53,300 nt of DNA from Prevotella sp. CAG:1320 (GTDB lineage: Bacteria; Bacteroidota; Bacteroidia; Bacteroidales; Bacteroidaceae): NCBI GenBank assembly GCA_000435635.1, contig FR882113.1:1-53300 (forward strand), read 5' to 3'. Below, piece after piece: positions 23,412 to 40,138 of this stretch; the first letter of the stretch is position 1; each line of letters opens with the position of its first letter. A model generated the notes under the pieces. It was not told the origin of the DNA. It ran no database searches and saw nothing but the letters and a program-made list of their open reading frames with translations. The position numbers and the translations under genes are program-made.

Positions 23412-23488
23412 CAGTACTACTGAAATCAAATATCAGTACTACTGCTTTCCAATATCAGTACTACTGAAATTGAAAAGCAGTAGTACTG
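23412..23488. repeat. Array A: four 11-bp palindromes at 22-bp period
   Basis: CAGTACTACTG occurs at 23412, 23434 and 23456, and its reverse complement CAGTAGTACTG at 23478. Starts are exactly 22 bp apart. The unit is a perfect palindrome (CAGTA/TACTG) around one central base, so the fourth unit differs only in the centre. The three 11-bp spacers (AAATCAAATAT, CTTTCCAATAT, AAATTGAAAAG) differ while all units are intact. Simple tandem duplication would not give identical units with unlike spacers. Confidence 0.9.
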
Positions 23489-23496
23489 ACTTTTTT
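23455..23496 (+). terminator. Terminator of the ruvB-coaD-ybeY operon (units 3 and 4 of array A)
   Basis: Array A units 3 and 4 pair over 12 bp, including an outer T-A, around an 11-nt loop. TTTTTT follows after two bases, the form of an intrinsic terminator. It lies about 145 nt after the ybeY stop. Confidence 0.6.
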
Positions 23497-23586
23497 GCCC
23501 CTAGCATGACAAAGGCGTAGGCATAAGCCAAGCTCTCGGAAACCAGACAGAGAGTGCCCACCGAGGGCGCAAACCCTCGCTTTTGG

Positions 23587-23689
23587 AAAACAAGTTATTT
23601 CGCTTGGCAATTCAACTTGTTTTGGTCGGCAAAACAAGTTGTTTTCATGAGCAAAACAAGTTATTTTGTTTCTCAAAACAACTTAGATT
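23587..23689. repeat. Array B: five 15-bp palindromes at 22-bp period
   Basis: Units start at 23587, 23609, 23631, 23653 and 23675, each exactly 22 bp apart: AAAACAAGTTATTTC, AATTCAACTTGTTTT, AAAACAAGTTGTTTT, AAAACAAGTTATTTT and AAAACAACTTAGATT. The consensus is AAAACAASTTGTTTT, a palindrome around a single central C or G. The 7-bp spacers (GCTTGGC, GGTCGGC, CATGAGC, GTTTCTC) are unlike each other. The same unit family recurs at 34986-35088. Confidence 0.9.
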
Positions 23690-23722
23690 CAAAAGGCACT
23701 TGCGTACAACGTATATTTAAAA

Positions 23723-23784
23723 TGAGTTCGACGAAAAATCGCCAAGACGTGAGAACGCATCTTGGCGACTTTTCGTCGAGTTCA
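23723..23784. repeat. Long hairpin with GAGTTCGACGAA ends
   Basis: A 62-nt inverted repeat has 25-nt arms with three differences, two of which are G-U compatible, and a 12-nt loop. The arms contain GAGTTCGACGAAAA and TCGCCAAGA. It lies 32 nt downstream of the S46 peptidase stop and may serve as its terminator. Its ends recur as the ends of the inverted repeat at 35092-35261, so it belongs to a dispersed family. Confidence 0.8.
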
Positions 23785-23815
23785 CACCGTTATAAGGCGT
23801 GTAAGGAAACGCGGC

Positions 23816-25936
23816 TTATTGGGCGTTTATCTCCTTAAGCAATCGGTCGGCATGACCCCATGCGTCCATCATGTAGAGCACGTAGCGGATGTCCACACCT
23901 ATGCAGCGGGCCAGGCGCTTATCGAAGTTGATGTCGCTAGAGAGACTATCCCAGTTGCCATCGAAGGCCAGTCCTATCAGCTCTCCCTTGCCATTGAACA
24001 TGGGGCTGCCAGAGTTGCCGCCCGTGATGTCATTATTGGTCAGGAAGCAGAGCTGCAACTTGCCCGTCTGCTTGTCTTGATACTTTCCGAAGTCCTTACG
24101 GGAAAGGAGCTCGTGCATGATAGGCTCGGCCTCATATTCATACACCTCGTTGGCGCGGTTCATCTTCTCGATGATGCTCTCGGCGGTGGTGTAGTAGCCA
24201 GAGGGCTTTCCTCCCAGTTCGAAGCCCCCCACCTGGCCATAGCTGAGACGCATGGTGAAATTGGCGTCGGAATAGTGGGGCAGGTCTTCCTCCATGCGGA
24301 GCTTGGCGGCGCAGAGGTATTTCTCCTGCAAGGCGATGCTGTCTTCCAGCGTGCCAGTGCGCTCCATCAGTTCGTTGACGATGTCCATGATGGCGAAACC
24401 ATAGCTTACGCCTGGGTCTTTCTGGAAGTCCTCGCTCTTGTAGTAGAAGCGGGCTCCGGGCTGCATGAGCTTGGACTCGCTGTAGAGGTAGTCCACGTAC
24501 TTGGCGCAGTCGCCGCCGTAAACGCTGTCGATGGTGGCGTAGAAGGAGGGCAGCCACTCGGCCGAAACCTGCTTGCGATAGTTGTCGAGCAGGGCGGCGA
24601 GGATGTCCTTGTCGGTGGCCAAGTCCCAGCTCTCGCTGTTGTCGTCAAACTCGTGGTATTGCTTCTGCGGGTCACCGTTCTCGTCTTTTACCTCCATGCC
24701 GCTGTACACCTTGCGGGCACGGTCTGAGAACTCCACGTTTCCGCCGCGGCCAAAGGTCTCCAGCCAGCAGGTCCAGACGTACTCCAGTGCCTGGTGGCGG
24801 TTGTAGAGGTCGGCCAGGAGGTCGAAGTCCACCTCGTGCTCCAGCAAGTTGGTGGAGTCTTGCCAAGCGCGGATGCGAGCCTCGTATTCCCTCTTTTGGT
24901 TGATAATGCCAATGGAGTCGATGCACTTGTTCATGCCGATGGAGTTCTTCCAGTAGTTGGAACTCTGGGCGAACTTGGAGTCATACTTGATGCGCACGGC
25001 CTCGTCCGCCCTCATGTGCTTCAGCATCACGGCCTGCTTCACGCCCCTTATCTGGGCGCGGGGGGCATTCTGCGCGTCACGCATTTGCTGTATACCATAG
25101 CTGGAGAGATAACGCTCCGTGCTGCCAGGATAGCCCACGGTCATGGCGAAATCACCTTCCTTATATCCCTGCAGGGACACTTTCGCCCACCGCTTCGGCT
25201 TGTAGGGCACGTTGTCCTTGGAATAAGCCGCGGGGCCATTGGTCTTGGGATTGGCGTAGATACGGAACACCGAGAAATCGCAAGTCTGGCGAGGCCACAT
25301 CCAGTTGTCAGTCTCTCCTCCAAACTTACCCATCGACTTGGGCACGGCGAAGACCAACCTCAGGTCGGTGAAGTCTTGGTAAGTGGTGGCGTACCATTTG
25401 TTGCCCTCATAGAAAGCGTCAATAGCTACGTGCAGGGTGCTGTCCTTTATCTTCACCTCCTGGGTCATGGCCTGCTGCAGGGAATCTATCAGCTGGGCCT
25501 TGCCCTCGGTAGAGAGAGCCTCATACCCTAATTGGTTGACACGGTCGGTAATGTCCTGTTGGTCTACCATGAAACTGACGAACATGTTCTCGTTGGGCAG
25601 TTCCTCCTCATAGGTTTTCGCGTAAAAGCCGTTGAGCATATAGTCGTGCTCCACGGTGGAGTGGCTGCGAATGGCCTCGAAGCCACAATGGTGGTTGGTG
25701 AACACCAGTCCATCGGGTGACACCACCACGCCTGAGCAGAAGCCCGAGAAATTGACTACGCAGTCCTTCAGGGCGTTGTCGCTGGCGTAGAGTCCGTCGT
25801 AAGGCATTTGGAAACCATAGCCCTGCATCTGCCTGTAGATGGCCTCGGGCAGATTATAAAGCGTCCACATGCCTTCGTCCGCCTTGGCCGAGACCATGCT
25901 CAGCAGGGCGAGAATCATTAGCGATAACTTTTTCAT
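23816..25936 (-). CDS. S46 family dipeptidyl-peptidase (DPP7-like)
   Basis: A 706-aa exported serine exopeptidase that removes dipeptides from the N-terminus of peptides in the periplasm, as in asaccharolytic and proteolytic Bacteroidetes. The signal peptide covers residues 1-19. The chymotrypsin-like triad is visible: His82/83 in FTNHHCGFEA, an Asp in the TDNWMWPRQTCDF segment, and Ser642 in TGGNSGSP. The residue 18 after the catalytic serine, which is Gly in DPP7 (hydrophobic P1) and Arg in DPP11 (acidic P1), is Gly660 here, so DPP7-type specificity is inferred. It is the last gene of the minus-strand operon after the flippase, 30 bp downstream of it. Confidence 0.93.
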   Translation of the reverse strand: MKKLSLMILALLSMVSAKADEGMWTLYNLPEAIYRQMQGYGFQMPYDGLYASDNALKDCVVNFSGFCSGVVVSPDGLVFTNHHCGFEAIRSHSTVEHDYMLNGFYAKTYEEELPNENMFVSFMVDQQDITDRVNQLGYEALSTEGKAQLIDSLQQAMTQEVKIKDSTLHVAIDAFYEGNKWYATTYQDFTDLRLVFAVPKSMGKFGGETDNWMWPRQTCDFSVFRIYANPKTNGPAAYSKDNVPYKPKRWAKVSLQGYKEGDFAMTVGYPGSTERYLSSYGIQQMRDAQNAPRAQIRGVKQAVMLKHMRADEAVRIKYDSKFAQSSNYWKNSIGMNKCIDSIGIINQKREYEARIRAWQDSTNLLEHEVDFDLLADLYNRHQALEYVWTCWLETFGRGGNVEFSDRARKVYSGMEVKDENGDPQKQYHEFDDNSESWDLATDKDILAALLDNYRKQVSAEWLPSFYATIDSVYGGDCAKYVDYLYSESKLMQPGARFYYKSEDFQKDPGVSYGFAIMDIVNELMERTGTLEDSIALQEKYLCAAKLRMEEDLPHYSDANFTMRLSYGQVGGFELGGKPSGYYTTAESIIEKMNRANEVYEYEAEPIMHELLSRKDFGKYQDKQTGKLQLCFLTNNDITGGNSGSPMFNGKGELIGLAFDGNWDSLSSDINFDKRLARCIGVDIRYVLYMMDAWGHADRLLKEINAQ

Positions 25937-25966
25937 CTTTTCTTGTCTTGATTATGATATGTTTGG

Positions 25967-27427
25967 TTATTTGAAATGCTTTCCTATCACGGGAAGGCTG
26001 CGCAGCGGAAAATCCCGTTTCACCAGGTAAACGGCGAAAACGGCTATCAACAAGGTGTTTACCGCCACGGCCAACCACATGGAGAGATACTTATTGGCCA
26101 ACAGCATACCCACGCAGAGCACCCCGGCCAAGGCCACATAGGAGAGGCAACGGCCAATGGGATAAGCTATCGGGTACTTGCGCTGGCCAACGATATAAGA
26201 GAGAGTCATGGCCACGCCATAACCCGCGAAGCCCGCCCAAGCGCAGGCCATATAGCCATAACGGGGAACGAAGATGACGTTGATGGCCACCAGCACCAGG
26301 CATCCGATGCCGGAGAAATAGGCACCCCAAATGGTCTTGTCTATCAATTTGTACCAAAAAGACAGATTGAAATAAACGCCCATCATGATTTCCGCCGCCA
26401 TGACAATGGGCACGACCTTGAGACCTTCCCAATAGTCGCGGCCTATAATGAAGCGCAGGATGTCAATGTAACCCACCACGAAGAGGAAGGCCAGCAACGT
26501 GAAGATGAGGAAATACTTCATGGCCTGGGCGTAAGTGTCACGGTTGTCCCGCTCCTTGGCCTTTCCGAAGACAAAAGGCTCATAGGCATAACGGAAAGCC
26601 TGGGTAATCATGGCCATGATCATGGCTATCTTGGAAGCGGCTCCGTAGATTCCCAGTTGGGCATGCGCATCCGCCCCGTGATAAAGATAGGGGAAGAGTA
26701 TCTTGTCCGCGGTCTGGTTCAAGATGCCGGCAATGCCCAACACCAGGATGGGCCAACTATAGGAAAGCATCCTGCCCATCAGGGCGCGGCACTCTGCCCA
26801 GCTGCCCACTCCCGCGGAAAAGCCCTCGCGCAACTCCCGCCAAAAGAAGAAAGTGATGGAACCTGTGCAAACCAGGTTAATATAGAAGGCGTAACCTACC
26901 TCCGTACCGCCCATGACGAGATAATAAATGATATTAAGCGTGATATTCAGGCCTATGAACAGCAATTTCAAGGCGGCGAACCGCAAGGGACGCTTTTTGT
27001 AGCGCAGGTAAGCGAAAGGAATGCATTGGAACGCGTCAATGGCCACCGTGGTGAACATCACCCAAACGTAGGAGGGATGGTCGGCATACCCCATCAGTCC
27101 GCTCAACGGCGAAAGGAAGAGGAAGACCAAGGCCACGAAAAGCAGCGAGGTGGTACCTACCATGGTAAGCGTGGTAGCGTAGACTCGTTGAGCATTTTCC
27201 CCTTCCTTGTTGGCGAAACGAAAGAAAGTGGTTTCCATGCCATAGGTGAGGATGACCATCAGCAATGCCGTGTAGGCATACATATTGGTGATTACGCCAT
27301 ATCCGCCCGATGCCGCGCTGATTTTGGCGGTATACAAAGGAACAAGCAGGTAATTGAGAAACCTGCCTATGATGCTGCTCATGCCATAAATGGCCGTGTC
27401 TTTGGCCAAAGACTTTAAGTTTGCCAT
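25967..27427 (-). CDS. Wzx-like polysaccharide / lipid-linked oligosaccharide flippase
   Basis: A 486-aa integral membrane protein of the MATE-like polysaccharide-synthesis (Wzx/RfbX) superfamily. It has about twelve to fourteen hydrophobic helices and the typical start SLAKDTAIYGMSSIIGRFLNYLLVPLYT (abridged). Such proteins flip undecaprenyl-linked glycans across the inner membrane. No glycosyltransferases are adjacent, so this is a stand-alone flippase and not part of a visible capsule cluster. Its start lies 11 bp after the stop of the nucleoside-recognition gene, and the S46 peptidase follows, so all three are probably one transcript. Confidence 0.88.
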   Translation of the reverse strand: MANLKSLAKDTAIYGMSSIIGRFLNYLLVPLYTAKISAASGGYGVITNMYAYTALLMVILTYGMETTFFRFANKEGENAQRVYATTLTMVGTTSLLFVALVFLFLSPLSGLMGYADHPSYVWVMFTTVAIDAFQCIPFAYLRYKKRPLRFAALKLLFIGLNITLNIIYYLVMGGTEVGYAFYINLVCTGSITFFFWRELREGFSAGVGSWAECRALMGRMLSYSWPILVLGIAGILNQTADKILFPYLYHGADAHAQLGIYGAASKIAMIMAMITQAFRYAYEPFVFGKAKERDNRDTYAQAMKYFLIFTLLAFLFVVGYIDILRFIIGRDYWEGLKVVPIVMAAEIMMGVYFNLSFWYKLIDKTIWGAYFSGIGCLVLVAINVIFVPRYGYMACAWAGFAGYGVAMTLSYIVGQRKYPIAYPIGRCLSYVALAGVLCVGMLLANKYLSMWLAVAVNTLLIAVFAVYLVKRDFPLRSLPVIGKHFK

Positions 27428-27438
27428 GGTTGCGAGGT

Positions 27439-28668
27439 TTATCCGAAGAATAGATATGCCACGCTAATGGCGGCCGCTACGCCGAAAAGATCGGCCAACA
27501 GACCGCACGCCACAGCGTGACGGGTATATTTGACGCTGACGGCTCCGAAGTAGACCGCCAGGATATAAAAGGTAGTGTCGGTGGAACCCTGGAAGATACA
27601 ACTCAACCGTCCCACGAAAGAGTCTGGCCCATAATTGCTCATGGCCTCCAGCATCAGCCCTCTCGCTCCACTGCCAGAAAGGGGCTTCATCAAGGCGGTA
27701 GGCAGAGCGCCCACGAACTCGCTGTCCAGTCCACAGCTTTCCACGCCCCAAGCGATGCCGTCTATCAACATGTCCATGGCGCCAGATGCCCTGAAAACAC
27801 CTACGCCCACCAATATGGCCACCAAATAGGGAATGATTCTGACGGCGGTGGAAAAGCCCTCTTTCGCCCCCTCTATGAAAGCGTCGTAGACATTCACCTT
27901 GCGGAATACGCCCGAGAGGATAAACGTGAGGATGATGCTGAGCAGGATAAAGTTGGAGGCGACACTCGTCACCGTGGCCATGGTGTCTTTGTCCATTTGG
28001 CCAAAGATCCATATCACCAGTCCCAAGAACACGATGATGCCCCCCAGGAAACTGAGCAGCACGGGCTGCAAGAGATTGATGCGCTGCCAAAGAGCCGTGA
28101 TGATGATGCCCGCTATGGTGGCCACGGTGGTGGCCAACAAGATAGGGATGAACACGTCGGTAGGCTGCGCCGCCCCATAAGAGGCGCGGAAAGCCAGTAT
28201 CGTGGTGGGAATGACCGTAAGCCCGCTGGTGTTGAGCACCAGGAACATAATCATCGGGTTGGTGGCGGTATCCTTTTTCGGGTTCAGCTCCTGCATCTGC
28301 TGCATGGCCTTCAGGCCGGTAGGGGTGGCGGCGTTGTCCAGTCCCAACATGTTGGAGGCTATGTTCATGAAGATGCTGCCCATGGCAGGATGGTTGCGGG
28401 GAATGTCTGGGAACAGCTTGGTGAAAAGAGGGCTAAGGCAGCGGGCCAATACGTCGACCATGCCCGAGCGTTCGCCTATCTTCATGATACCCAGCCATAA
28501 CGCCAATACGCCCGTAAGACCCAGGGAGGTCTCGAAAGCGGTCTTGGAAGAGGAGAACGTAGCGTCAACGATACGTTGGAAGACACCCGCGTCTCCCATG
28601 CACAGCTGTATCGCCCCGAAGAGGAAGGCGATGACAAAGAAGGCTATCCAAATGTAATTCAGTACCAT
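27439..28668 (-). CDS. Nucleoside-recognition (Gate) domain membrane protein, SpmA-SpmB fusion type
   Basis: A 409-aa membrane protein with two Gate/nucleoside-recognition domains. The first resembles spore maturation protein A (ASNMLGLDNAATPTGLKAM, then NPMIMFLVLNTSGLTVIP). The second (GAKEGFSTAVRIIPYLVAILVGVG, then PLSGSGARGLM) resembles SpmB. Firmicutes split these into spmA and spmB. Bacteroidetes, which do not sporulate, carry them fused. The transported substrate is not known. The ATG at 28668 is chosen because a complete promoter ends 9 nt upstream of it. The longer frame from a TTG at 28707 would start inside that promoter. Confidence 0.88.
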   Translation of the reverse strand: MVLNYIWIAFFVIAFLFGAIQLCMGDAGVFQRIVDATFSSSKTAFETSLGLTGVLALWLGIMKIGERSGMVDVLARCLSPLFTKLFPDIPRNHPAMGSIFMNIASNMLGLDNAATPTGLKAMQQMQELNPKKDTATNPMIMFLVLNTSGLTVIPTTILAFRASYGAAQPTDVFIPILLATTVATIAGIIITALWQRINLLQPVLLSFLGGIIVFLGLVIWIFGQMDKDTMATVTSVASNFILLSIILTFILSGVFRKVNVYDAFIEGAKEGFSTAVRIIPYLVAILVGVGVFRASGAMDMLIDGIAWGVESCGLDSEFVGALPTALMKPLSGSGARGLMLEAMSNYGPDSFVGRLSCIFQGSTDTTFYILAVYFGAVSVKYTRHAVACGLLADLFGVAAAISVAYLFFG

Positions 28669-28677
28669 AAACGCTTG

Positions 28678-28708
28678 CAAAGGTAGGCAATTCTTTTCGT
28701 ATGGCAAA
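28678..28708 (-). promoter_or_regulatory. Promoter of the Gate protein-flippase-S46 peptidase operon
   Basis: On the minus strand TTTG (28705-28708), a 19-nt spacer and TACCTTTG (28678-28685) give a complete Bacteroidetes promoter 9 nt upstream of the ATG at 28668. Confidence 0.8.
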
Positions 28709-28784
28709 GCGTATGAGGGAAAAATGCCCGCTCTTGCCTGGCGAAGCCCTCAGATAGACCTGTCCTTTCCCTCGGCGAGGTGAG

Positions 28785-28869
28785 GAATCATCTCAGATGA
28801 TTCTAGGAATAGTCTTAGATGATTCTAGGAATAGAGTAAGATGATTCCCACTTTCATCTAAGATGATTT
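28785..28869. repeat. Array C: four 19-bp palindromic units at 22-bp period
   Basis: The first unit GAATCATCTCAGATGATTC is a perfect 9+1+9 palindrome. Further units start at 28807, 28829 and 28851, each exactly 22 bp on. In all four the right arm AGATGATTC is kept (last copy AGATGATTT), at 28795, 28817, 28839 and 28861. The left arm degenerates to GAATAGTCT, GAATAGAGT and CTTTCATCT. Only 3 bp separate units. The centre bases are C, T, A and A. The unit sequence is unrelated to arrays A and B, but the period is the same. Confidence 0.88.
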
Positions 28870-28951
28870 CCTGGTGGGCGGGCGGCTAAGCACAAGGTGG
28901 GCGGGACATTGGGTGACGCTCCCCCGCCATCTGCCTCCGCCACCATCGAAA

Positions 28952-28996
28952 GAAGGCTTCCTCCCTTGCCGCGGGGAGCGGCGGAAAGAAGCCTTC
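28952..28996 (-). terminator. Bipartite hairpin after the TonB-dependent receptor gene
   Basis: GAAGGCTTC (28952-28960) pairs perfectly with GAAGCCTTC (28988-28996), and inside it GCCGC (28968-28972) pairs with GCGGC (28978-28982). On the minus strand it lies 28 nt after the receptor stop. Only a short U-run follows. Confidence 0.6.
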
Positions 28997-29024
28997 GCCA
29001 TTGTCATTGGTGTGCGCCCAAGCG

Positions 29025-31094
29025 TCACAGGTGTATGGCCAAGCCTGCCATGAAATAACGGCCAGGCTGTTCCACGTTACCGATATCCACGTATCGCTTG
29101 GCGAGCAAGTTATTCATGTCCACGTAGGCATCCCACTGGCCAGCTTGCCATGCCACTCTTCCGTCCAGCACGCCATAAGTGCCATAGCTATGGGTAACAC
29201 CCAGATAGTCCACGTAACTGCCCACCCTGTGCTGCAAACGATAGCGCAAGTCAACGAGCAATCGCTTGAAAGGCATCATTCGCAAGTTGGCGGTGAACTT
29301 ATGGCGCAAGTACTCCAAGACGTAAAGGCTGCGTATGCCTGCCTGTTCCTGGTGGTTCTGCGACATGTAGCAGTAACTAGCGGAGAAGCTTTCCAGCCAT
29401 TGTTGCCCAGGAAGGAGCGTGCGTAAGCCCAGGCTAAGATTGGCCTCCACTCCCCAAGCCTTTATCTTGCCGAAGTTCACGGACTTCCACACCACGTCGC
29501 CAGCCTCATCCACGGTGCCGTCATCTATCCAGTCTATCAAGTTCGTGTACTGGTTATGAAATCCTTTTACGTCCATTTCCATGCCGTCTGCCACATATCT
29601 CGCGCCAACTTCCAATGCCCATAGTTCCTCGGGGCGTAAATGCTTGTCGGCCGCGTGCCCTTTTTGGGAATAGTAAAGCTCCGTGGCCGAGGGCATGCGA
29701 AGCGAGCTGTTGGCAGAGGCGTACACCTTCCAGCGGTCGCTTATCCTGTAAGCGGCATCAATGCCTGGATAGACTTTCATCCCCATGTTGGCCCAGCTGT
29801 TTTCCACAGTGGTGAAGCCCGCCGACAAGGTAAGCCCCCGCCAGAAGAAGTTATGCTCTAGCGCCAACTGGACATTGGTGCGGTTCAATCCGCGGGTATA
29901 ATTCAAGTCGGTGCCATGAATAGGTTGGGGATTGTCCAGCGGCTCGCCCAGCGTGGTGCTCACCAAGTCTTCATTGCGCAAGTCCGCCGCGAAAGCCGTG
30001 CGCCCTGCCGCCCAGTCAAAATAAGCGTTGATGCCCACGCCATAGACATCAGAGCAGTGATAGTTGAAGGGATATCTTTCGGGCTGGTCTCGATAGAGCT
30101 CCCATCGGTCCTCATTGTGGTTCCAGTAAACCGAAGGGCGCAATCGCAAACCGCCCACTTTGGTTTCCGCCACCAAGGCCACGTAGGTTTTCAACGTATG
30201 TTCAAATTGGTCATCGGAAGAAAGGCTGTAGAAATTGTTGGAACCGAAATCCTTCACGCTGACGCCCGCATGCCAACGGGCAGTGACCCAATCGTCTTGA
30301 TATCGCCCCTGGTAAAAGGCCTTGGCGGTCTTGAAGTCAGTATTCAGCTTGCCCGCGGTGTTTCTCAAGTAGCCATCGCTTCGGGCGTAAGAAGCCGAAA
30401 GGGCGTTGTTCCATCTTCCTGAAACTATGTTGCCACGGGCACCCAAGCCAAATGTGCCATAACTGCCTGCGCCCAAGTTGGCGTCCAGGCCGCTCTTCCC
30501 GGGCATGCGGGTCACGATATTGATGGCACCCAGCAGTGAGGACGCGCCATAAACCCTGGCGGCTGGCCCGCTGAGTATCTCTATCCGCTCTATGGCGGAC
30601 TTGTCCACGGGAAAGTCAAAAGAGTTGTGCCCCGTTTGCGGGTCACGGATGCTGACCCCATTGAGCAACACGTCTATCTGCTCATAGTTGCCTCCCCTGA
30701 CGCTGATGTCTGTCTGGGCTCCCATAGGTCCCCGTTGCCGGACATCCACTCCCGCCACATATTTCAGCAGGTCGTTTACACTTTGCACTGGCGCCGCTTG
30801 AATCTCCTCCCGGCTCAGTACAGTTACCATTCTCGATTGCTGACGCTGGGTCAGCGGCGCTCGGGCTCCGGTGATGTTCACCTCCTCGAGTTCCCTCTGC
30901 ATACTGATGAGCGTGTCGGCCCCTATCCTGTACGTTTGCGTGGAAATGCTGTCTGCCTTGGCGCTCGACAGCGTGGCTACGCTCAGCGTACCGATAATGA
31001 CCTCCCTGCCCAAGTACGAGAAGAGGGCATAGCCCTTGTTCAAGAAACGCTTGAACACGACTACCTCGCGCTTGTTGAAAATCGTCTTGTACAT
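29025..31094 (-). CDS. TonB-dependent outer-membrane receptor
   Basis: A 689-aa outer-membrane active transporter. The N-terminus (MYKTIFNKREVVVFKRF, then KGYALFSYLGREV and a hydrophobic stretch ending in SSAKA) is the form typical of Bacteroidetes TonB receptors. A plug domain follows, with VTVLSREEIQAAPVQSVNDLL and VLLNGVSIRDP, then IERIEILSGPAARVYG and a beta-barrel of about 22 strands ending in an aromatic-poor FMAGLAIHL. It resembles BtuB and siderophore receptors. The ligand is not evident. No SusD partner, periplasmic binding protein or riboswitch is adjacent. An upstream in-frame ATG at 31127 would add 11 residues. The gene is divergent from the sigma-factor gene. Confidence 0.92.
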   Translation of the reverse strand: MYKTIFNKREVVVFKRFLNKGYALFSYLGREVIIGTLSVATLSSAKADSISTQTYRIGADTLISMQRELEEVNITGARAPLTQRQQSRMVTVLSREEIQAAPVQSVNDLLKYVAGVDVRQRGPMGAQTDISVRGGNYEQIDVLLNGVSIRDPQTGHNSFDFPVDKSAIERIEILSGPAARVYGASSLLGAINIVTRMPGKSGLDANLGAGSYGTFGLGARGNIVSGRWNNALSASYARSDGYLRNTAGKLNTDFKTAKAFYQGRYQDDWVTARWHAGVSVKDFGSNNFYSLSSDDQFEHTLKTYVALVAETKVGGLRLRPSVYWNHNEDRWELYRDQPERYPFNYHCSDVYGVGINAYFDWAAGRTAFAADLRNEDLVSTTLGEPLDNPQPIHGTDLNYTRGLNRTNVQLALEHNFFWRGLTLSAGFTTVENSWANMGMKVYPGIDAAYRISDRWKVYASANSSLRMPSATELYYSQKGHAADKHLRPEELWALEVGARYVADGMEMDVKGFHNQYTNLIDWIDDGTVDEAGDVVWKSVNFGKIKAWGVEANLSLGLRTLLPGQQWLESFSASYCYMSQNHQEQAGIRSLYVLEYLRHKFTANLRMMPFKRLLVDLRYRLQHRVGSYVDYLGVTHSYGTYGVLDGRVAWQAGQWDAYVDMNNLLAKRYVDIGNVEQPGRYFMAGLAIHL

Positions 31095-31140
31095 GATTTG
31101 ATAAATTAAAGAAGCGTTGCCGCTCATGCGACAAACGGCG

Positions 31141-31148
31141 CGAAGTTA
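31141..31148 (-). promoter_or_regulatory. -7 element of the TonB-receptor gene
   Basis: The minus strand reads TAACTTCG followed by CG, 46 nt upstream of the chosen ATG. It is back-to-back with the sigma-factor promoter 20 bp away, so the two start regions nearly overlap. Confidence 0.45.
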
Positions 31149-31167
31149 CAACTTTTCACTTTCAGAA

Positions 31168-34342: not shown

Positions 34343-34373
34343 CGTGGTGGGAAAAAACGTTGTTTGCCGTCTG

Positions 34374-34381
34374 CAAACATA
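34374..34381 (-). promoter_or_regulatory. -7 element of the hybrid kinase gene
   Basis: The minus strand reads TATGTTTG, a perfect TAnnTTTG, 31 nt upstream of the ATG at 34342. It excludes the longer reading frame that begins at 34495. Confidence 0.55.
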
Positions 34382-34479
34382 CGCATTTATTTTGGAAAGT
34401 AAGCCTCTTGGGATGGAAAAGTAGCTGTTTTGCGCGAGAATACCGCCTTGCCGTCCCGCGAAAGGGCCATAAACAATGA

Positions 34480-34510
34480 GACCCGCCGCAGGCAATTGCC
34501 CGGGCGGGTC
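34480..34510 (-). terminator. Terminator of the small secreted peptide gene
   Basis: GACCCGCC (34480-34487) pairs with GGCGGGTC (34503-34510). The enclosed GGCAATTGCC is a second, smaller palindrome. It lies 51 nt after the stop at 34562. Confidence 0.6.
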
Positions 34511-34561
34511 TACTTTCTCTCATTCACATTCCTCTCTTGGAAATGCCACTATACATGTCCC

Positions 34562-34744
34562 TTACTGAGCGACGCTATCGCTGGGGGCAACGGTTGTAGC
34601 GGCTACGGTGTCAGTTGAAGTAGTTACAGTAGAGTCAGAAACGACAGTCTCAGGCAGAGTGCCCTCAACACCCTTAGCTGCGAATACATTACTTACAGAT
34701 ACCAATACCATTGCGGCGAAAGCCAATACAAATAACTTCTTCAT
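34562..34744 (-). CDS. Small secreted peptide, Thr/Val/Ser-rich
   Basis: A 60-aa product with a clear signal peptide (MKKLFVLAFAAMVLVSVSNVFA, residues 1-22, given here for its length and hydrophobic core). The mature part is about 38 residues of low-complexity Thr, Val, Ser, Ala and Asp with no Cys. It has its own terminator and a long AT-rich upstream region. Similar small alanine/threonine-rich secreted peptides are common in Bacteroidetes and have no assigned role. The AT-content of the leader and the isolated position suggest an independent, possibly strongly expressed gene. No family name can be given with confidence. Confidence 0.65.
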   Translation of the reverse strand: MKKLFVLAFAAMVLVSVSNVFAAKGVEGTLPETVVSDSTVTTSTDTVAATTVAPSDSVAQ

Positions 34745-34874
34745 AATTCTTTCAGTTTTTATTGTTATTAAATATGTTGTCTTGTTGACGCTTATATTTA
34801 TGCAACGGGCGTGCCAAAAGGGTGACGAAAGAGCTAACTGCCTGATATTGAGGAAGAAGAAAATTTTTATGAGA

Positions 34875-34936
34875 ATTGGGGAAGTGTGGAAATTGTGGAA
34901 TAGGTGTGGAATTATTCCACAATTCCGTTCCCCAAT
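34875..34936. repeat. 62-nt imperfect hairpin
   Basis: ATTGGGGAA (34875-34883) pairs with TTCCCCAAT (34928-34936). AATTGTGGAATA (34891-34902) pairs perfectly with TATTCCACAATT (34913-34924) around a 10-nt loop. The two inner arms start 22 bp apart, the same spacing as in the neighbouring array B'. Confidence 0.75.
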
Positions 34937-34985
34937 CCTGTGGAAAACACCCCCTCTGCCGCCTCGTTATTTTGGGGGCTTGGGG

Positions 34986-35088
34986 AAATCAACTTGTTTC
35001 GCTCGGGAAAATAAGTTATTTTGCTTGGGAAAACAACTTGTTTTCGTGTCGGAAATAACTTGTTTTAATCAGGAAAATAACTTGTTTT
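34986..35088. repeat. Array B': five 15-bp palindromes at 22-bp period
   Basis: Units start at 34986, 35008, 35030, 35052 and 35074, exactly 22 bp apart: AAATCAACTTGTTTC, AAAATAAGTTATTTT, AAAACAACTTGTTTT, GAAATAACTTGTTTT and AAAATAACTTGTTTT. The consensus equals array B (AAAAYAASTTGTTTT). In unit 2 both arms have changed together (C to T and G to A), so it remains a perfect palindrome. The spacers GCTCGGG, GCTTGGG, CGTGTCG and AATCAGG differ, apart from the first two. Confidence 0.9.
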
Positions 35089-35091
35089 ATC

Positions 35092-35261
35092 GTGAGTTCG
35101 ACGAATTCCACTTTATGTGCGCAGCCCTGTTATTGCCGAACTGTAGAGACGCATTCTTGCGTCTCAGCCAGCTGCCAAGTCTTCGCGACAGGCGACTTTA
35201 TCCGGCTATCTTGCTTGCCGAGACGCAAAAATGCGTCTCTACAAGTTTTCGTCGAACTCAC
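35092..35261. repeat. 170-bp element with 14-bp inverted ends
   Basis: GTGAGTTCGACGAA (35092-35105) and TTCGTCGAACTCAC (35248-35261) are perfect inverted repeats. The same end sequence is found on the 62-nt hairpin at 23723. The interior holds the GTAG-headed pair at 35143-35242. No coding sequence and no clear target-site duplication are visible. It resembles a MITE in form only. Confidence 0.7.
35143..35242. repeat. REPIN-like inverted pair of GTAG-headed palindromes
   Basis: GTAG followed by the palindrome GAGACGCA-TTCT-TGCGTCTC (sharing AG) lies at 35143-35165. An inverted copy ending CTCTAC lies at 35220-35242. A GTAG tetranucleotide next to a palindrome, occurring in inverted pairs, is the hallmark of REP elements mobilised by RAYT (TnpA-REP) transposases. 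No RAYT gene is in the window. Confidence 0.75.
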
Positions 35262-35340
35262 GATGTTTTAATAACGGCATGTTTTCAGCCTGCATGGCGA
35301 TAACCCGTTAGAGGGGTGTATAACTTGTCGTTGCCAAAGT

Positions 35341-35441
35341 GTAGAGAACGCATTCTTGCGTCTCAGCAAGCAAAATCGCTGAATAAAATCGCCACCCGCA
35401 AAGGCCTGGCGGTTTGCTGAGACGCAAGAATGCGTCTCTAC
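35341..35441. repeat. Second REPIN-like inverted pair
   Basis: GTAGAGAACGCATTCTTGCGTCTC (with one extra A; 35341-35364, quoted for its GTAG head and arms) is followed by an inverted copy at 35419-35441 with arms GAGACGCA and TGCGTCTC. The inner flanks CAGCAAGC and GTTTGCTG are also complementary. The layout and size match the pair 200 bp to the left. Confidence 0.75.
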
Positions 35442-35485
35442 AATTTTTCGCCGGATTCACTTAAATTAAATAATGTGTAGCTGGG

Positions 35486-36892
35486 TTATCGCTCGGTAGA
35501 TAGCCCGTATTTCTGCAATTTATTGTAAAGGGTCTTGCGGTCAATGCCCAAGAGAATGGCGGTCTTGCTCTTATTGCCCCCCGTGGACTTCAGGGCGGCC
35601 AGAATGCGCTGCCGCTCCGTGTTCTCGTCACGCAAGGCGAGGTTCTCCTGGTGGGTTGGTTGTCGCATGGATAGGCGCAGCTCCTCCACGCCTATGTAGT
35701 CGCCCTTCACCAACAGCGTGGCACGCTTCACCACGTTGTTGAGTTCTCGCAGGTTGCCAGGCCAGTCATAGCGGGCCAACATCTCGGAAGCCTTGTCGTC
35801 GAAGCCTATCACGTTACGCCCCAGTTCCTCGTTGGCGTGTTTCAGGAAGAGGTCGGCGAAAAGGAAGAGGTCGCTGTCCCTGTCCTTCAAGGCGGGCATC
35901 ACGATGGTGAATTCGTTGATGCGATGGTAAAGGTCTTCACGGAAAGTGCCCTCCTCCACCAGCTTGGCCAGGTCGCCATTGGTGGCGCACACCAGGCGGA
36001 TATCTATCTCCACCTCTTTCGCGCCGCCCAGCGGTCTCACTTTCCTTTCCTGCAAGGCCCTGAGCAGTTGCACTTGCACGTCATAAGTCAGGTTGCCCAC
36101 CTCGTCGAGGAAGAGCGTACCGCCATTGGCCAGTTCAAAGGCGCCTTTCTTGTCGGACATGGCACCCGTGAACGCCCCTTTGGTATACCCGAAGAATTCT
36201 GAGGCGGCCACGTCCTTGGGAATCGCGCCGCAGTCGAGGGCGAAAAAAGGCTTGTCCGCTCGGGGGCTTTGCTCGTGGATGCGATGGGCAACGTATTCCT
36301 TGCCAGTGCCGCTGGCTCCCAGGATGAGCACGGAAAGGGGCGTGGGAGCCACCAGGTTCACGTAATCATAGAGTTGGCGGGAGGCCTCGCTTTTGCCTTC
36401 TATGTATTTGGGAGTTCCGTCCGCAGCCTTCTCCTTGGGCGAAAGAGGAGCGGAATGGGGATGGGCAGGCTTGGCGGAAGTGGCAGGAAGCGGAGAGGGG
36501 GCGGCGTTCCCCTGCTCTTTCGCGGCAGAATTTGGCCGCAAGGCATCTTGTATCTTGCGGAGCAAGGCTTCCTTTTCCACGGGCTTGGCGATATAGTCGC
36601 AGGCTCCAGACTTCATGGCCTCCACGGCGTTTTGCACCTCTGCGTAGCTGGTCATCACGATAAAGGGGGTCATGATGGCTTGCTTGCGCATCCAGTGGAG
36701 CAGGAAGAGGCCGTCGCGATCGGGCAAGCGGAGGTCGGACAACACCAAGTCAAACTGGCCGCCCGCGGTGAAAAGCTTGGCGGCATCTATCACCGCGCCC
36801 GTCTTCTCCACCTCAAAGCCATGCTTGCGCAACCACGCTTGCATCATGGTGGCATAGGTCAAGTCGTCTTCCACTATCAGGATTCGTGCCAT
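35486..36892 (-). CDS. Sigma-54-dependent response regulator (NtrC family)
   Basis: A 468-aa transcription activator. The receiver domain (1-118) has Asp53 in LVLSDLRLPDRDG, preceded by the acidic VEDD pair. A Pro/Ala-rich linker (about 120-160) leads to the AAA+ domain with Walker A GASGTGKE (192-199) and the sigma-54 contact loop GAFTGA (239-244). The C-terminal Fis-type helix-turn-helix (about 430-468) is GNKSKTAILLGIDRKTLYNKL. It activates RpoN promoters after phosphorylation. The chosen start MARILIVEDD follows a perfect -7 element, and an extra 19 codons upstream are unlikely. Its probable signal source is the hybrid kinase at 31853-34342. Confidence 0.95.
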   Translation of the reverse strand: MARILIVEDDLTYATMMQAWLRKHGFEVEKTGAVIDAAKLFTAGGQFDLVLSDLRLPDRDGLFLLHWMRKQAIMTPFIVMTSYAEVQNAVEAMKSGACDYIAKPVEKEALLRKIQDALRPNSAAKEQGNAAPSPLPATSAKPAHPHSAPLSPKEKAADGTPKYIEGKSEASRQLYDYVNLVAPTPLSVLILGASGTGKEYVAHRIHEQSPRADKPFFALDCGAIPKDVAASEFFGYTKGAFTGAMSDKKGAFELANGGTLFLDEVGNLTYDVQVQLLRALQERKVRPLGGAKEVEIDIRLVCATNGDLAKLVEEGTFREDLYHRINEFTIVMPALKDRDSDLFLFADLFLKHANEELGRNVIGFDDKASEMLARYDWPGNLRELNNVVKRATLLVKGDYIGVEELRLSMRQPTHQENLALRDENTERQRILAALKSTGGNKSKTAILLGIDRKTLYNKLQKYGLSTER

Positions 36893-36914
36893 AAAGTCTA
36901 TCTGCTTTCTGATG

Positions 36915-36922
36915 CAAAGGTA
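36915..36922 (-). promoter_or_regulatory. -7 element of the NtrC-type regulator gene
   Basis: The minus strand reads TACCTTTG, a perfect TAnnTTTG, 22 nt upstream of the ATG at 36892. No -33 TTTG is seen at 19-21 nt. Confidence 0.6.
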
Positions 36923-37090
36923 CATATTAATATGGTAGGAATATGCCATGCCTATTCATTTTTAGGCCTTTTTAACCCCAATCGGGGAGATTTCCTTTCA
37001 GATGGTGAAATGGCGAAACGTAATGGCGAATTGCGTTTTGCGCATACCCAAATGTAGAGACATGGCTCTTCCATTGTTTTCTTGCTTGCT

Positions 37091-37193
37091 GAGACGCAAA
37101 AATGCGTCTCTACACGCGACGGCTAATACATTCTTGACAAAATTACATAACAAAATGTCAGCAGAAACGTGTAGAGACGCATTTTTGCGTCTC
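37091..37193. repeat. Pair of GTAG-headed palindromes in tail-to-tail order
   Basis: GAGACGCAAAAATGCGTCTC plus TAC lies at 37091-37113, and GTAGAGACGCA-TTT-TTGCGTCTC at 37171-37193. They are inverted to each other, with the GTAG heads facing inward and the CTTGCTTGCT / GGCAAGCAAG flanks facing outward. This is the opposite arrangement from the two pairs at 35143 and 35341. Confidence 0.75.
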
Positions 37194-37227
37194 GGCAAGC
37201 AAGGAGGCAGGTGAATGACAACAACGG

Positions 37228-37271
37228 GAATCCCGCCCAGGGAAGACCATTGGCCTTGCTGGGCGGGATTC
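37228..37271 (-). terminator. Terminator of the GH31 gene
   Basis: GAATCCCGCCCAG (37228-37240) pairs perfectly over 13 bp with CTGGGCGGGATTC (37259-37271), with an 18-nt loop. It ends 27 nt downstream of the GH31 stop. Confidence 0.75.
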
Positions 37272-37298
37272 ATTATCACAGATAAATTCGGAATGCGC

Positions 37299-39770
37299 TC
37301 AGAACTTCACGCTGACGTTCCTGCCCGTATAGTTGACCGTCTTGGTGACAGTCTTGCCTTGCTGGTCTACCAAGGTGACACGGAAAGCACGGCGAGTCAG
37401 CATGCCGGGATAGCTGCCCTGACGCTTGGCGATGGTGAGGCGGCGGGCTTTGTTGTCCCATTTCAAGGCGATAGTGCTGTAAACACCCTTCTCGTAGTTA
37501 TAGTTGTCGCCCTCGTCCTCATAGAGGGTAAAGCTGCCGTTGGCACCAGCGTATACACGCAACTCCAGGTTGTCCCACTTCTTCTCGGTGGCATACTGCA
37601 CGTCGGGACCCATGGGGATGATAGCGCCGGCACGGGCAAAGACGGGCACGAGGTTGATGCGGCTCTCCAAGGTGATGGTCTGTCCGCCCTGGTAGTGCTT
37701 GTTGCTGTTGAAATCATACCAGTCGGCACCTTGCGGCAGGTAAACCTGCGTGGTCTTGGGCTGCGAGAAATCCACGTTGCCCAGGTTGGCCACGGTCTTG
37801 TCGCCTTCCGATTTGTTCCATCCTTCCTCGGCGGTCATCTTGCGCTGCGACTCGGGCGTATACTGCGCCTTGAGCACGGGAGCCACCAACAGTGACTGAC
37901 CAAACATGAAAGCGTCTCGGTTATTCCACACCTGCTTGTCTGCGGGGAAGTCCATCATCAAGGCACGCATGAAGCTATAGCCTTGGCTGGTCACCTGCCA
38001 GGAGGTGGAGTAAATGTAGGGCAGCAGGGAATAGCGCATCTTGATGGCGGCCAACTGTGCGTCGTAGATGGGTTCGCCTGCCTTGCCGAATTGGTAAACC
38101 TCTCGGGGAGCGTCCGCGCCATGGCTGCGCATCATGGGCGTAAAGATGGCGAACTGCATCCAGCGGGTGTAAAGCTCTTGGAAAGCGGGGTTATGCGGTG
38201 CGCTTCCGTCTCCCCAGGAGTTATTGTAGGCACTGCAGAAGAAGCCGCCTATATCTGAATTGAAATTGGGATTTCCCGTCAGGGTGAAGTTAAGACCTGC
38301 GTTCACCTGGTTGCGCAAAGCGTCCCAAGAGGAAGTCACGTCTCCCGACCAAACGTTGCAGCCATAACGTTGCTGTCCTGCATAGCCCGAGCGGGTGAGA
38401 ATGAAGACGCGCTTGGTGGAGTCTATGGCTCGCTGGTGGTCATATACACCGCCCACGGTGAGCAAGGGATAGGCGTTTCTCACGCTGCGGAAAGAACCCA
38501 TGCCGGTAGGTGTGTCCATATCGTCCTCGGTTCCGTCGAAATGGTCTGGCTCGGTGGAGTCCATCCACCATCCGTCCATGCCCAGGTCATAGAGGCGCTT
38601 CAGGTGTTTCCAGTAGATGTCCCTGGCCTCAGCGCTATAGGTGTTGTATACCCTCACGCCAGAAGGATAGTCCATGCGAGGGGGCCACTGCTCTCCGATA
38701 CCCGACTGTGGCCAGGTGGAGAAGTTGAAGAGCAATCCCTTCGCGTCCAGTTCCCTATAGGGCTTCGTCATTGGGCCGAAGGAAGACCAGATGGAGGGAA
38801 TGATATGGGCGTTCATCTTGTGGACTTGCTCCACCATGCCCTTGGCGTTGGGGAAGTCGGCGTTCATGAATTCCATGGAGTTCCACAGATAGTTGTTGCC
38901 CCAGTATTGCCAGTCCTGGATGATGCCGTCGATGGGCACGCCCAGCTCGCGGTACTTGGTCACCACTTCCAGCAACTCCTTCTGGCTCTTGTAACGCTCC
39001 CGGCTCTGCCAGAAGCCATAAGTCCACAAGGGGAACATGGGCACTTGCCCCGTCAGCTCCCTCATCTGCGCCACTACGCCATCGGCGTTGTTGCCACGCA
39101 TGAAGTAGTAATCCACGCTGTTGCCCACAGTGGATTCGAATGTGGTGCCTTGCTGGTTGTCGGTGAAGCGCACAGGCGAATAGTTGTCCCAATATACGCC
39201 ATATCCTTTCACGGAGAGAATATAGGGAATGCCGTCCTCCACGTTTCCAGGCAGCAAGGTACGGTTCACGTCGCGCTGCGAGAGTTTGCCGTTCTCCAGG
39301 TTGCCCAGTCCATAGATGGCCTCATCTGCTTCTAGCTTAAAAGACTGGCTGGACTTATAGCTGCCTTTGTCGGCACGCTCGGTAATCTGGGTGAAATTGG
39401 CCTTTCCTGTTTCGGTAAGCAGTTGCTTGCCATCCTTGGTCAGGAAGCTCACCTCGCCAGTGGCCTTATCCACGTTCACCCGCAAAGTCTTGGAAGACAA
39501 GGTGACTTGGCTGGCCCCGTCCTTCAAGGAAACGGAAGTCTTTTTGGGCTTCATCACTACCGCCATGGAGGGTTTGCCGGGATTGGTGGAATACTGGGTA
39601 GGATATTTCACCACCCTTACGATGTCATTGTTGAGGAAGGTGACCTCTACCTTTTGGTCATCTGCGGTGAGCGTCACGCCTTGGTCTGTGCGTGTCACCG
39701 TTTGCGCCAGGGCAGCCATCGCGGACAGGCATAGCGCGGATAACGTCAATAGGAATTTCTGTTTGTACAT
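37299..39770 (-). CDS. Glycoside hydrolase family 31 (alpha-glucosidase or alpha-xylosidase)
   Basis: An 823-aa exported enzyme. The signal peptide is MYKQKFLLTLSALCLSAMAALAQ, abridged here by its Ala-rich end. The N-terminal beta-sandwich is followed by the catalytic barrel with nucleophile Asp404 in DGWWMDSTEPD and acid/base Asp477 in VWSGDVTSSW. Proximal and distal C-terminal sheets (YLPQGADWYDF, then EDEGDNYNYEKG) follow. The WMDSTEPD form recalls xyloglucan or xylan-side-chain alpha-xylosidases, while other GH31 enzymes cut starch-type alpha-glucosides. Both remain possible. The longer frame from 39848 is rejected because it would place the signal peptide internally. It lies downstream of the xylan cluster on the same strand but has its own intergenic region. 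Confidence 0.9.
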   Translation of the reverse strand: MYKQKFLLTLSALCLSAMAALAQTVTRTDQGVTLTADDQKVEVTFLNNDIVRVVKYPTQYSTNPGKPSMAVVMKPKKTSVSLKDGASQVTLSSKTLRVNVDKATGEVSFLTKDGKQLLTETGKANFTQITERADKGSYKSSQSFKLEADEAIYGLGNLENGKLSQRDVNRTLLPGNVEDGIPYILSVKGYGVYWDNYSPVRFTDNQQGTTFESTVGNSVDYYFMRGNNADGVVAQMRELTGQVPMFPLWTYGFWQSRERYKSQKELLEVVTKYRELGVPIDGIIQDWQYWGNNYLWNSMEFMNADFPNAKGMVEQVHKMNAHIIPSIWSSFGPMTKPYRELDAKGLLFNFSTWPQSGIGEQWPPRMDYPSGVRVYNTYSAEARDIYWKHLKRLYDLGMDGWWMDSTEPDHFDGTEDDMDTPTGMGSFRSVRNAYPLLTVGGVYDHQRAIDSTKRVFILTRSGYAGQQRYGCNVWSGDVTSSWDALRNQVNAGLNFTLTGNPNFNSDIGGFFCSAYNNSWGDGSAPHNPAFQELYTRWMQFAIFTPMMRSHGADAPREVYQFGKAGEPIYDAQLAAIKMRYSLLPYIYSTSWQVTSQGYSFMRALMMDFPADKQVWNNRDAFMFGQSLLVAPVLKAQYTPESQRKMTAEEGWNKSEGDKTVANLGNVDFSQPKTTQVYLPQGADWYDFNSNKHYQGGQTITLESRINLVPVFARAGAIIPMGPDVQYATEKKWDNLELRVYAGANGSFTLYEDEGDNYNYEKGVYSTIALKWDNKARRLTIAKRQGSYPGMLTRRAFRVTLVDQQGKTVTKTVNYTGRNVSVKF

Positions 39771-40010
39771 AAGTCGTAGAATATTAAGTCGCGGAACATA
39801 TAGATTATTACAGTTAGCGAGGTTAGGTTGCGAGCGTCTAGTACGCATTCCAGATTACTCACGCAAATTTACGAATTTCCTCCTAAAATGTCCAAAATAC
39901 ACCTTAATATTATAATATGTTTTCTTATTTTAACGCCCGTTCGGGGAATAGTGAGTGAAAGACTGCCATTGGCAGGGTCGTGGAGGTGCGCCCCCTGTCC
40001 CCGCGTTTTT

Positions 40011-40116
40011 GAGATAGTAATCTCGTGCTTGGTGAGATAGTAATCTCATCGGCTATGAGATAGTAATCTCACTTGAGGTGAGATAGTAATCTCAGTCGGG
40101 GTGAGACTGTAATCCC
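40011..40116. repeat. Array D: five GAGATAGTAATCTC units at 23-bp period
   Basis: GAGATAGTAATCTC starts at 40011, 40034, 40057 and 40080. A decayed copy GAGACTGTAATCCC starts at 40103. The spacing is exactly 23 bp throughout. The unit has palindromic arms TGAGAT/ATCTCA around AGTA. Four copies are identical over 14 bp, while the 9-bp spacers GTGCTTGGT, ATCGGCTAT, ACTTGAGGT and AGTCGGGGT differ. Period and layout match arrays A-C, but the unit sequence does not. Confidence 0.9.
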
Positions 40117-40138
40117 GATGTCGGGTCGACGGAAAGGT

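What the first reader, a model, noticed from the sequence alone, without database searches (positions are those of the whole stretch)
23412..40116. Intergenic arrays of palindromes with one shared period of 22-23 bp but different unit sequences
Five arrays in four intergenic regions share a layout: four or five short near-palindromes with start-to-start distance constant at 22 bp (A, B, C, B') or 23 bp (D). In A, B, B' and C the palindrome has a single central base. Inside most arrays the units are almost identical while spacers of equal length differ, which ordinary tandem duplication would not produce. Between loci the unit changes but the period does not. This suggests that spacing and self-complementarity are maintained, not sequence. 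One reading is binding sites two helical turns apart for a dimeric protein. Another is RNA in which any unit can pair with any other. A third is units copied onto each other by strand switching. I do not recognise this as a named element class.
Basis: partly seen in the sequence, partly recalled or inferred. Interest (0 to 1): 0.88.

Follow-up and report, generated by a model that had tools for sequence, protein, structure and literature searches.

The report
Two-turn-phased palindrome arrays in Prevotella
Prevotella genomes carry short intergenic rows of self-mirrored DNA sites spaced exactly 22 letters apart, in the best cases at dozens to more than a hundred places; the site sequence changes from genome to genome while the spacing stays, which points to something that reads geometry along the DNA.

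Summary
The five arrays are real and beyond chance: 4 period-22 and 1 period-23 array in the window, 0 in 60 shuffles. They belong to a family-wide phenomenon. In the window plus 80 relatives' loci (1.5 Mb), a palindrome-blind finder gave 64 period-22 arrays (63 intergenic), against 1 at 21, 4 at 23, 0 at 24. Three genomes searched whole each repeat a unit of their own, with 435, 258 and 83 adjacent-unit matches and 0 in reversed controls, beside arrays with other units (19 of 22, 5 of 8 and 3 of 5 sampled arrays have the main unit). All 142 steps counted around these units were 22. In P. lacticifex the array sits in a ~195-bp element whose edge distance is 178 in 31 of 42 copies at median identity 0.66. 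One version is probably PINSR of P. intermedia (Naito 2015), function unknown. Best reading: a platform of dimer-binding sites two helical turns apart, conserved in geometry, lineage-specific in sequence. The binder is unknown: Y1 transposases and Lrp/AsnC do not fit. Host service or selfish element: open.

The parts
23412..23488 (.). Array A: 4 palindromic 11-bp units CAGTACTACTG (last one CAGTAGTACTG), step 22, followed by a T run; convergent gap between ybeY and an S46 peptidase gene
23587..23689 (.). Array B: 5 units around AAAACAAGTTGTTTT (15 bp), step 22; same gap as A
28785..28869 (.). Array C: 4 units, GAATCATCTCAGATGATTC decaying to one arm, step 22; upstream of the Gate (nucleoside-recognition) gene, a gap where other Prevotella genomes also carry period-22 arrays with other units
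34986..35088 (.). Array B': 5 units of the same family as B (AAAATAACTTGTTTT), step 22; beyond the 3' end of a sigma-54-type response regulator gene
40010..40117 (.). Array D: 5 units TGAGATAGTAATCTCA (last one degenerate), step 23; between GH43 and GH31 genes

Best explanation
The arrays are the cores of dispersed, non-coding intergenic repeat elements, dense in several Prevotella genomes. Each array is a row of often four or five operator-like palindromes whose centres lie two DNA turns (22 bp) apart, so that dimers of one DNA-binding protein sit side by side on one face of the helix and form a nucleoprotein complex of set geometry. In the best resolved version (P. lacticifex) the row ends in two cap units that mirror each other, is followed by an IHF-like motif, and lies between two AT-rich edge motifs 178 bp apart. 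The spacing is what is conserved; the site sequence differs between lineages, and one main unit per genome recurs, presumably because a lineage-specific binder and gene conversion or re-spreading keep copies alike. Shown: dispersion, exact period, lineage-specific units, a frame with few length changes, no orientation bias in P. lacticifex. Inferred: that a dimeric protein binds and oligomerises. Unknown: its identity, and whether the complex serves the chromosome or the spread of the element.
For: Period spectrum with its main spike at 22: 64 arrays against 1, 4 and 0 at 21, 23 and 24, a smaller one of 16 at 18. Genome-wide unit pairs 435, 258 and 83 with controls 0, 0, 0. 142 of 142 steps exactly 22 where 13-40 was allowed. 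P. lacticifex frame: 31 of 42 elements have edge distance 178, 4 have 177, 1 each 179, 188 and 191, 4 have no right motif within the limit; among the 31 the median pairwise identity is 0.66 and one pair of 465 exceeds 0.9; conserved columns (often 90-100%) are unit arms, parts of the caps and edge motifs, while unit centres, most spacer positions and outer flanks vary. Palindromes of P. jejuni, P. pallens and P. lacticifex run through the centre (CATG, GATATC, GG-N-CC), which a hairpin loop would not need. P. lacticifex spacers avoid self-complementarity at two of four position pairs (21 of 74 against 35.6 expected, p=0.0007; 17 against 31.4, p=0.0006), not at the others (31 against 30.7; 17 against 24.9, p=0.06); this would fit avoidance of a half-unit-shifted register. 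Elements face neighbouring genes in all four ways (6, 5, 4, 4 of 19). IHF-like WATCAANNNNTTR at one fixed place: at least 7 of 9 positions in 29 of 31 frames, beyond 300 column shuffles (consensus recalled).
Against: No binder was found. Lrp/AsnC, the oligomeric candidate I considered, has the same helix region in species with different units. Families turn over between species: none at the orthologous place in a relative 83% identical in the neighbouring gene, none in 400 kb of S. buccae, so they are not needed by the group as a whole. Genomes hold several unit families side by side (3 of 22, 3 of 8 and 2 of 5 sampled arrays have another unit), so one binder per genome is too simple. At the one orthologous element aligned in full the sequence is no better conserved (77%) than its flanks (76% and 70%); only its length is kept. 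In P. pallens unit number varies from 3 to 6 (13, 7, 6, 1 of 27). Some palindromes do not run through the centre (array D; P. falsenii AAAACCTACGGTTTT). G.U over A.C arm changes lean slightly towards RNA (21 to 13, not significant). 38 of 63 arrays miss p<=0.05 in the dyad test. The 42 elements were picked by the left motif and by units at 22-bp steps, so they are not all arrays; in an earlier set 5 of 25 arrays lacked the left motif at the stricter limit. The window's genome is not held.
Confidence: 0.45

Rival explanations
1. Parasitic, largely inert interspersed repeats (BOX- or MITE-like): the phased sites matter, if at all, only for the element's own mobilisation by an unidentified recombinase, and most copies are fossils homogenised by gene conversion.
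For: High copy number and presence/absence differences between related species; an orthologous element no better conserved than its flanks, with unit cores changed in blocks; synteny between P. falsenii and G093 breaks inside such an array, and Naito 2015 suggests PINSR took part in rearrangements; pneumococcal BOX elements are judged parasitic by their authors (PMC3049150, abstract and passages).
Against: At about 34% divergence fossils should carry indels, yet 31 of 42 frames have one length and 142 of 142 steps are 22; few near-identical copies (1 of 465 pairs above 0.9); Naito 2015 reports about three quarters of PINSR places shared by two strains.
Confidence: 0.35
2. RNA elements: transcribed arrays form hairpins or inter-unit duplexes with a 22-nt pitch (two A-form turns) and act in termination, stability or protein capture.
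For: Units are self-complementary; array A ends in an inverted unit plus a T run; in P. lacticifex the two end caps are complementary; G.U changes outnumber A.C 21 to 13; some units have a loop-like centre (array D).
Against: That excess is not significant (p=0.23); stems of 4-6 bp with palindromy up to the centre give poor hairpins (my estimate, not computed); no orientation to genes in P. lacticifex; divergent gaps also hold arrays (7 of 61); no Rfam family in the window except a tRNA.
Confidence: 0.12
3. REP/RAYT system: palindromes mobilised by a Y1 (HUH) transposase.
For: Genome-specific extragenic palindromes recall REP and BIME sequences.
Against: Y1_Tnp (PF01797) has no match in 8 of 14 genomes, among them P. 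jejuni, P. pallens and P. falsenii, which hold many arrays.
Confidence: 0.02
4. Ordinary tandem duplication or slippage around palindromes without selection on spacing.
For: Some arrays repeat nearly the full 22 bp, for example L048 15838.
Against: In many arrays spacers of equal length differ while units agree; slippage has no reason to give 22 in many genomes with unrelated units.
Confidence: 0.06

Closest known systems
[quoted passage not shown] 2015, PMC4755523)
   Same: Intergenic, 188 bp, 177 and 184 copies in two strains, judged non-coding, present in P. falsenii by PCR. P. lacticifex has a diverged version with a fixed frame.
   Different: In that paper's main text 'palindromic' occurs once, for CRISPR, and '22 bp' not at all; it holds that other clades lack the repeat. 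The window's arrays do not show the P. lacticifex edge motifs above background.
BOX elements of Streptococcus pneumoniae (boxA-boxBn-boxC; PMC3049150, abstract and passages)
   Same: High-copy modular repeat: edge modules around a tandem array; low present mobility.
   Different: boxB is about 45 bp (recalled); no exact two-turn phasing of palindromes across unrelated sequences appears in what I read.
BrickBuilt of Porphyromonas gingivalis (PMC4596501; abstract, section 5, part 1 of section 7)
   Same: Bacteroidales; leader, tandem 23-nt repeats, tail; intergenic.
   Different: 19 copies, 1 to 22.8 repeats, IS5-like terminal inverted repeats in some copies, repeats without spacers; 'palindrom' does not occur in its text.
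REP/BIME with RAYT
   Same: Genome-specific extragenic palindromes.
   Different: Y1 transposase not found in 8 of 14 genomes tested.
Iteron or tandem operator arrays (recalled)
   Same: Repeats about 22 bp apart on one DNA face bound by dimers or oligomers.
   Different: Those are single loci with a linked gene; here many unlinked copies.

Membership tests
PINSR | about 188-bp intergenic repeat in very high copy | tested here: met
   For P. lacticifex: 178-bp frame plus right motif, 435 adjacent-unit matches. For the window it cannot be counted (no genome).
PINSR | sequence match to the PINSR consensus | not testable with these tools
   The consensus is in a figure that is not held; P. falsenii is PCR-positive in the paper and its arrays were read here.
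PINSR | edge motifs of the PINSR-type element around the window's arrays | tested here: not met
   Mismatch sums 8 (C), 10 (B), 11 (A, B', D); at 150 random places the median is 11 and 4 reach 8 or less.
PINSR | no terminal inverted repeats | tested here: inconclusive
   Edge motifs are direct in P. lacticifex and look inverted in P. falsenii (by eye).
BOX-like modular repeat | left module, variable number of tandem units, right module | tested here: met
   P. pallens: 3-6 units between conserved flanks. P. lacticifex: three inner units and two caps; P. jejuni: 4 units in 12 of 13 arrays and no long flanks, so not met there.
BrickBuilt MITE | IS5-like terminal inverted repeats | not tested
   Not searched around the arrays; a separate MITE-like repeat abuts B and B'.
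REP/RAYT | Y1 transposase in the genome | tested here: not met
   No match in 8 of 14 genomes.
Lrp/AsnC-bound array | recognition helix differs between species with different units | tested here: not met
   GVSRAAIHQ and VSGAAIHQ unchanged across species with different units; 20 of the 32 matches were fetched and 2 of the 20 frames (buccae2, G067a) came out in a wrong frame and were not used.
CRISPR array | repeats and spacers over 20 bp each, cas genes | tested here: not met
   Unit plus spacer is 22 bp in all; none of the 10 proteins scanned around the arrays matched a Cas family.

The most novel reading that the evidence does not exclude
A class of chromosomal elements, wider than Prevotella, in which geometry and not sequence is inherited: rows of dimer sites locked at 22 bp and bound by an undiscovered, fast-evolving DNA-binding protein that wraps or bridges the chromosome at dozens to more than a hundred places, with site and protein co-diverging in each lineage; PINSR is one local version.
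Probability: 0.3. Interest if true: 0.85.

Novelty: new variant of a known kind. Interest (0 to 1): 0.72.

Why it matters
It gives one structural rule for intergenic repeats that look unrelated by sequence, offers an inner anatomy for PINSR (function open since 2015), and makes a sharp prediction: a protein whose DNA specificity tracks the main unit of its own genome and whose complex needs 22-bp phasing. If it organises the chromosome, it would be an unrecognised part of nucleoid biology in a major gut and oral genus; if it mobilises the element, an unknown transposition system with dozens to more than a hundred copies per genome.

Tried and rejected
Y1 transposase/RAYT: rejected. Lrp/AsnC as specificity determinant: rejected. 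Whole arrays as one long RNA hairpin in P. lacticifex: by eye, caps pair but inner spacers do not mirror each other. P. lacticifex edge motifs as a universal feature: rejected for most arrays. Comparison of 16 close pairs within the 80 loci gave mostly unmapped, absent or replaced regions; the usable pairs came from P. falsenii and G093. The gap orthologous to one P. lacticifex element in 11 relatives: 1 (L255) has a period-22 array of another unit, 10 none. Rfam on the window: a tRNA only. Plasmid collection: no match for the B' region. A first guessed pattern found nothing in 10 genomes. Literature searches: no listed paper describes 22-bp phased palindrome arrays in Prevotella; one search matched 510 papers of which 15 were listed, and only open-licence PMC papers are held.

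Filtering told: the finder drops units with N or more than 75% of one base, needs three units in register, and gives overlapping hits to the shorter period. Gene calls are my own crude caller. Arrays without a flanking gene on both sides were left out of the context counts (61 of 67 intergenic arrays of period 22 or 23 kept). Step counts use cores that I chose, and some P. jejuni loci overlap, so a few steps there are counted twice.

Full report
OBSERVATION. The window holds five arrays in four gaps between called genes: A and B between ybeY and an S46 peptidase gene, C upstream of a Gate (nucleoside recognition) gene, B' beyond the 3' end of a sigma-54-type response regulator gene, D between GH43 and GH31 genes. 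Tandem Repeats Finder reports all five. Exact unit starts show steps of 22 in A, B, B' and C and of 23 in D. Gene-wise dinucleotide shuffles (60) gave no array at any period from 15 to 30, against 4 at 22 and 1 at 23 in the window.

GENERALITY. The window's genome is not held, so I used 80 loci around the Gate gene, by record title Prevotellaceae apart from one 'Bacteroidales bacterium' (the best 80 of 574 relatives). With the window they make 1,507,169 bases. A finder that asks only for three units in register, blind to palindromes, gave by period: 22: 64 (63 intergenic), 21: 1, 23: 4, 24: 0, 44: 8, 33: 7, 18: 16 (11 intergenic), others 0-3. Many units are palindromic and they differ between genomes. 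The mean dyad score is 3.52 against 1.92 for shuffled columns, but only 25 of 63 arrays pass p<=0.05 singly. Of 61 arrays (period 22 or 23) with genes on both sides, 33 lie in codirectional, 21 in convergent and 7 in divergent gaps; all gaps of 120 bp or more: 235, 93, 101.

A MAIN UNIT PER GENOME, MANY COPIES. Whole-genome pattern searches with up to 2 mismatches: P. lacticifex AAACGGNCCGTTT-9-AAACGG 435 forward matches, P. pallens CAGATATCTG twice at 22 bp 258, P. jejuni TTTTCATGAAAA twice at 22 bp 83; the reversed control pattern gave 0 each time. At two or three such pairs per element this is of the order of 100-200 elements in P. lacticifex (inference). The main unit is not alone: 19 of 22 sampled intergenic period-22 arrays carry it in P. 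lacticifex (600 kb), 5 of 8 in P. pallens and 3 of 5 in P. jejuni. Distribution is patchy: 400 kb of S. buccae hold none; 294 kb of G292, a relative of P. lacticifex (83% identical in one gene), hold two arrays with other units. A similarity search with one P. lacticifex element matched 11 of 150 genomes of the genus, itself included.

ANATOMY IN P. LACTICIFEX. 42 elements were picked by the left motif and by units at 22-bp steps. The frame is: GAAATATCTTTACA, cap unit AATACATRCCRTTT, three AAACGGNCCGTTT units, cap unit AAATGGCATGTATT (mirror of the first), a tail with TTGATAATCAA-like sequence, then TGAATTATTTTTACA. The distance between edge motifs is 178 in 31, 177 in 4, 179, 188 and 191 in one each; 4 have no right motif within the mismatch limit. 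Among the 31, pairwise identity is 0.52-0.90 with median 0.66. Such divergence with so few length changes argues for constraint on spacing, directly or through gene conversion. The tail matches the recalled IHF consensus WATCAANNNNTTR at 7 or more of 9 positions in 29 of 31; none of 300 column shuffles reached the mean. This is a lead only. Outside the frame conservation falls off, apart from a few columns next to the left motif.

OTHER VERSIONS. P. pallens: 27 arrays of 3, 4, 5 or 6 units (13, 7, 6, 1), most with shared flanks of their own. P. jejuni: 13 arrays, 12 with exactly four units, bounded by short A/T-rich edges and, by eye, unique sequence beyond. In all three species every counted step is 22: 60 of 60 (P. 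pallens), 53 of 53 (P. lacticifex), 29 of 29 (P. jejuni), with 13-40 allowed.

SAME PLACE, DIFFERENT UNIT. Upstream of the Gate gene, where array C lies, 14 of 73 loci reach at least 10 conserved columns at period 22; at the other periods from 16 to 30 the count is 0-2. Units there differ from genome to genome; not every one of the 14 is plainly palindromic. P. falsenii and G093 (89-93% identical in the longest blocks) share one element at an orthologous place: no gap within it, 77% identity against 76% and 70% in the flanks, and two unit cores exchanged in blocks (AAAACCTACGCTTTT to AAAAGAGCCGCTTTT; AAAACCTACGGTTTT to AAAAGCGGCTCTTTT) with the step unchanged. So length, not sequence, is what that element keeps. 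A second place holds a full array in G093 and what looks like a remnant in P. falsenii, and at a third the synteny of the two genomes breaks inside the array. Positions can persist, units are rewritten in blocks, and arrays are gained and lost.

BEYOND PREVOTELLA. Twenty 20-kb stretches from 19 Bacteroidales genomes gave three period-22 arrays: L202, L209 and L212, the last only at the looser threshold or as period 44; at that threshold the other periods from 17 to 29 gave 0-3, at most 1 intergenic. In these 19 genomes the Gate protein is 56-63% identical (13) or not found (6), against 73% for a Paraprevotella record, so they are probably outside Prevotellaceae; their names are not told.

WHAT BINDS? 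Dimer sites fit: many palindromes go through the centre, and the steps are two turns; array D and P. falsenii units are exceptions at the very centre. RNA evidence is weak: G.U changes 21 against A.C 13 (p=0.23), elements face genes in all four ways. P. lacticifex spacers avoid self-complementarity at two of four position pairs (21 against 35.6 and 17 against 31.4 expected of 74; p about 0.0006 each), not at the other two (31 against 30.7; 17 against 24.9). That would keep dimers from binding half a unit out of register; avoidance of long perfect palindromes is an alternative. Lrp/AsnC proteins (octamers, recalled) occur in 14 of 14 genomes, array-rich or not, and their helix region does not change with the unit in the 18 usable sequences. 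Y1 transposases are not found in 8 of 14.

KNOWN RELATIVES. Naito et al. 2015 (PMC4755523: abstract, section 3.4 whole, passages) describe PINSR: 188 bp, 177 and 184 intergenic copies, also in P. falsenii, most likely no coding sequence, no terminal inverted repeats, about three quarters of places shared by two strains, source and function open. P. falsenii arrays read here and the P. lacticifex frame are, by size, copy number and structure, of that kind (inference; the consensus figure is not held). BOX (PMC3049150, abstract and passages) and BrickBuilt (PMC4596501, abstract, section 5 and section 7 part 1) share the modular plan. The window's arrays lack the P. lacticifex edge motifs, so I do not file them as PINSR but as members of the wider phased-palindrome class.

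VERDICT. Its kind, a high-copy interspersed repeat, is known and one version is probably named; the rule behind it, fixed two-turn phasing with lineage-specific palindromes, was not met in the searches named.

Noticed in passing
window 23722-23785 and 35092-35261: MITE-like repeats with inverted ends GTGAGTTCGACGAA close beside arrays B and B'; the ends resemble those listed for P. gingivalis MITE239 and ISPg3 (PMC4596501, Table 2).
   Followed up: partly
window about 35142-35243, 35340-35442, 37087-37197: Repeated hairpins built on TGTAGAGACGCA ... TGCGTCTCTACA, probably another MITE family.
   Followed up: no
window about 34570-34744, minus strand: A short reading frame starting MKKLFVLAFAAMVLVSVSNVFAAKG, like a small exported peptide, missed by my gene caller, in the gap that holds B'.
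   Followed up: no
L031 5398, L037 14508, L042 4656, flanks in L102 and L109 (P. lacticifex): A second class of intergenic arrays with period 9 or 18 built on CTATAG (16 arrays at period 18, not all of this kind).
   Followed up: no
L046 15471 / L302 / L301: Synteny between P. falsenii and G093 breaks inside a PINSR-type array, as if two copies had recombined.
   Followed up: partly
L010 19306 and window D (40010-40117): A minority of arrays keep a 23-bp step; both have longer palindromes (16-17 bp).
   Followed up: no
L012 14488, L038 16965, L001 3113: Period-44 arrays, apparently double units; these three are not palindromic by the dyad test.
   Followed up: no
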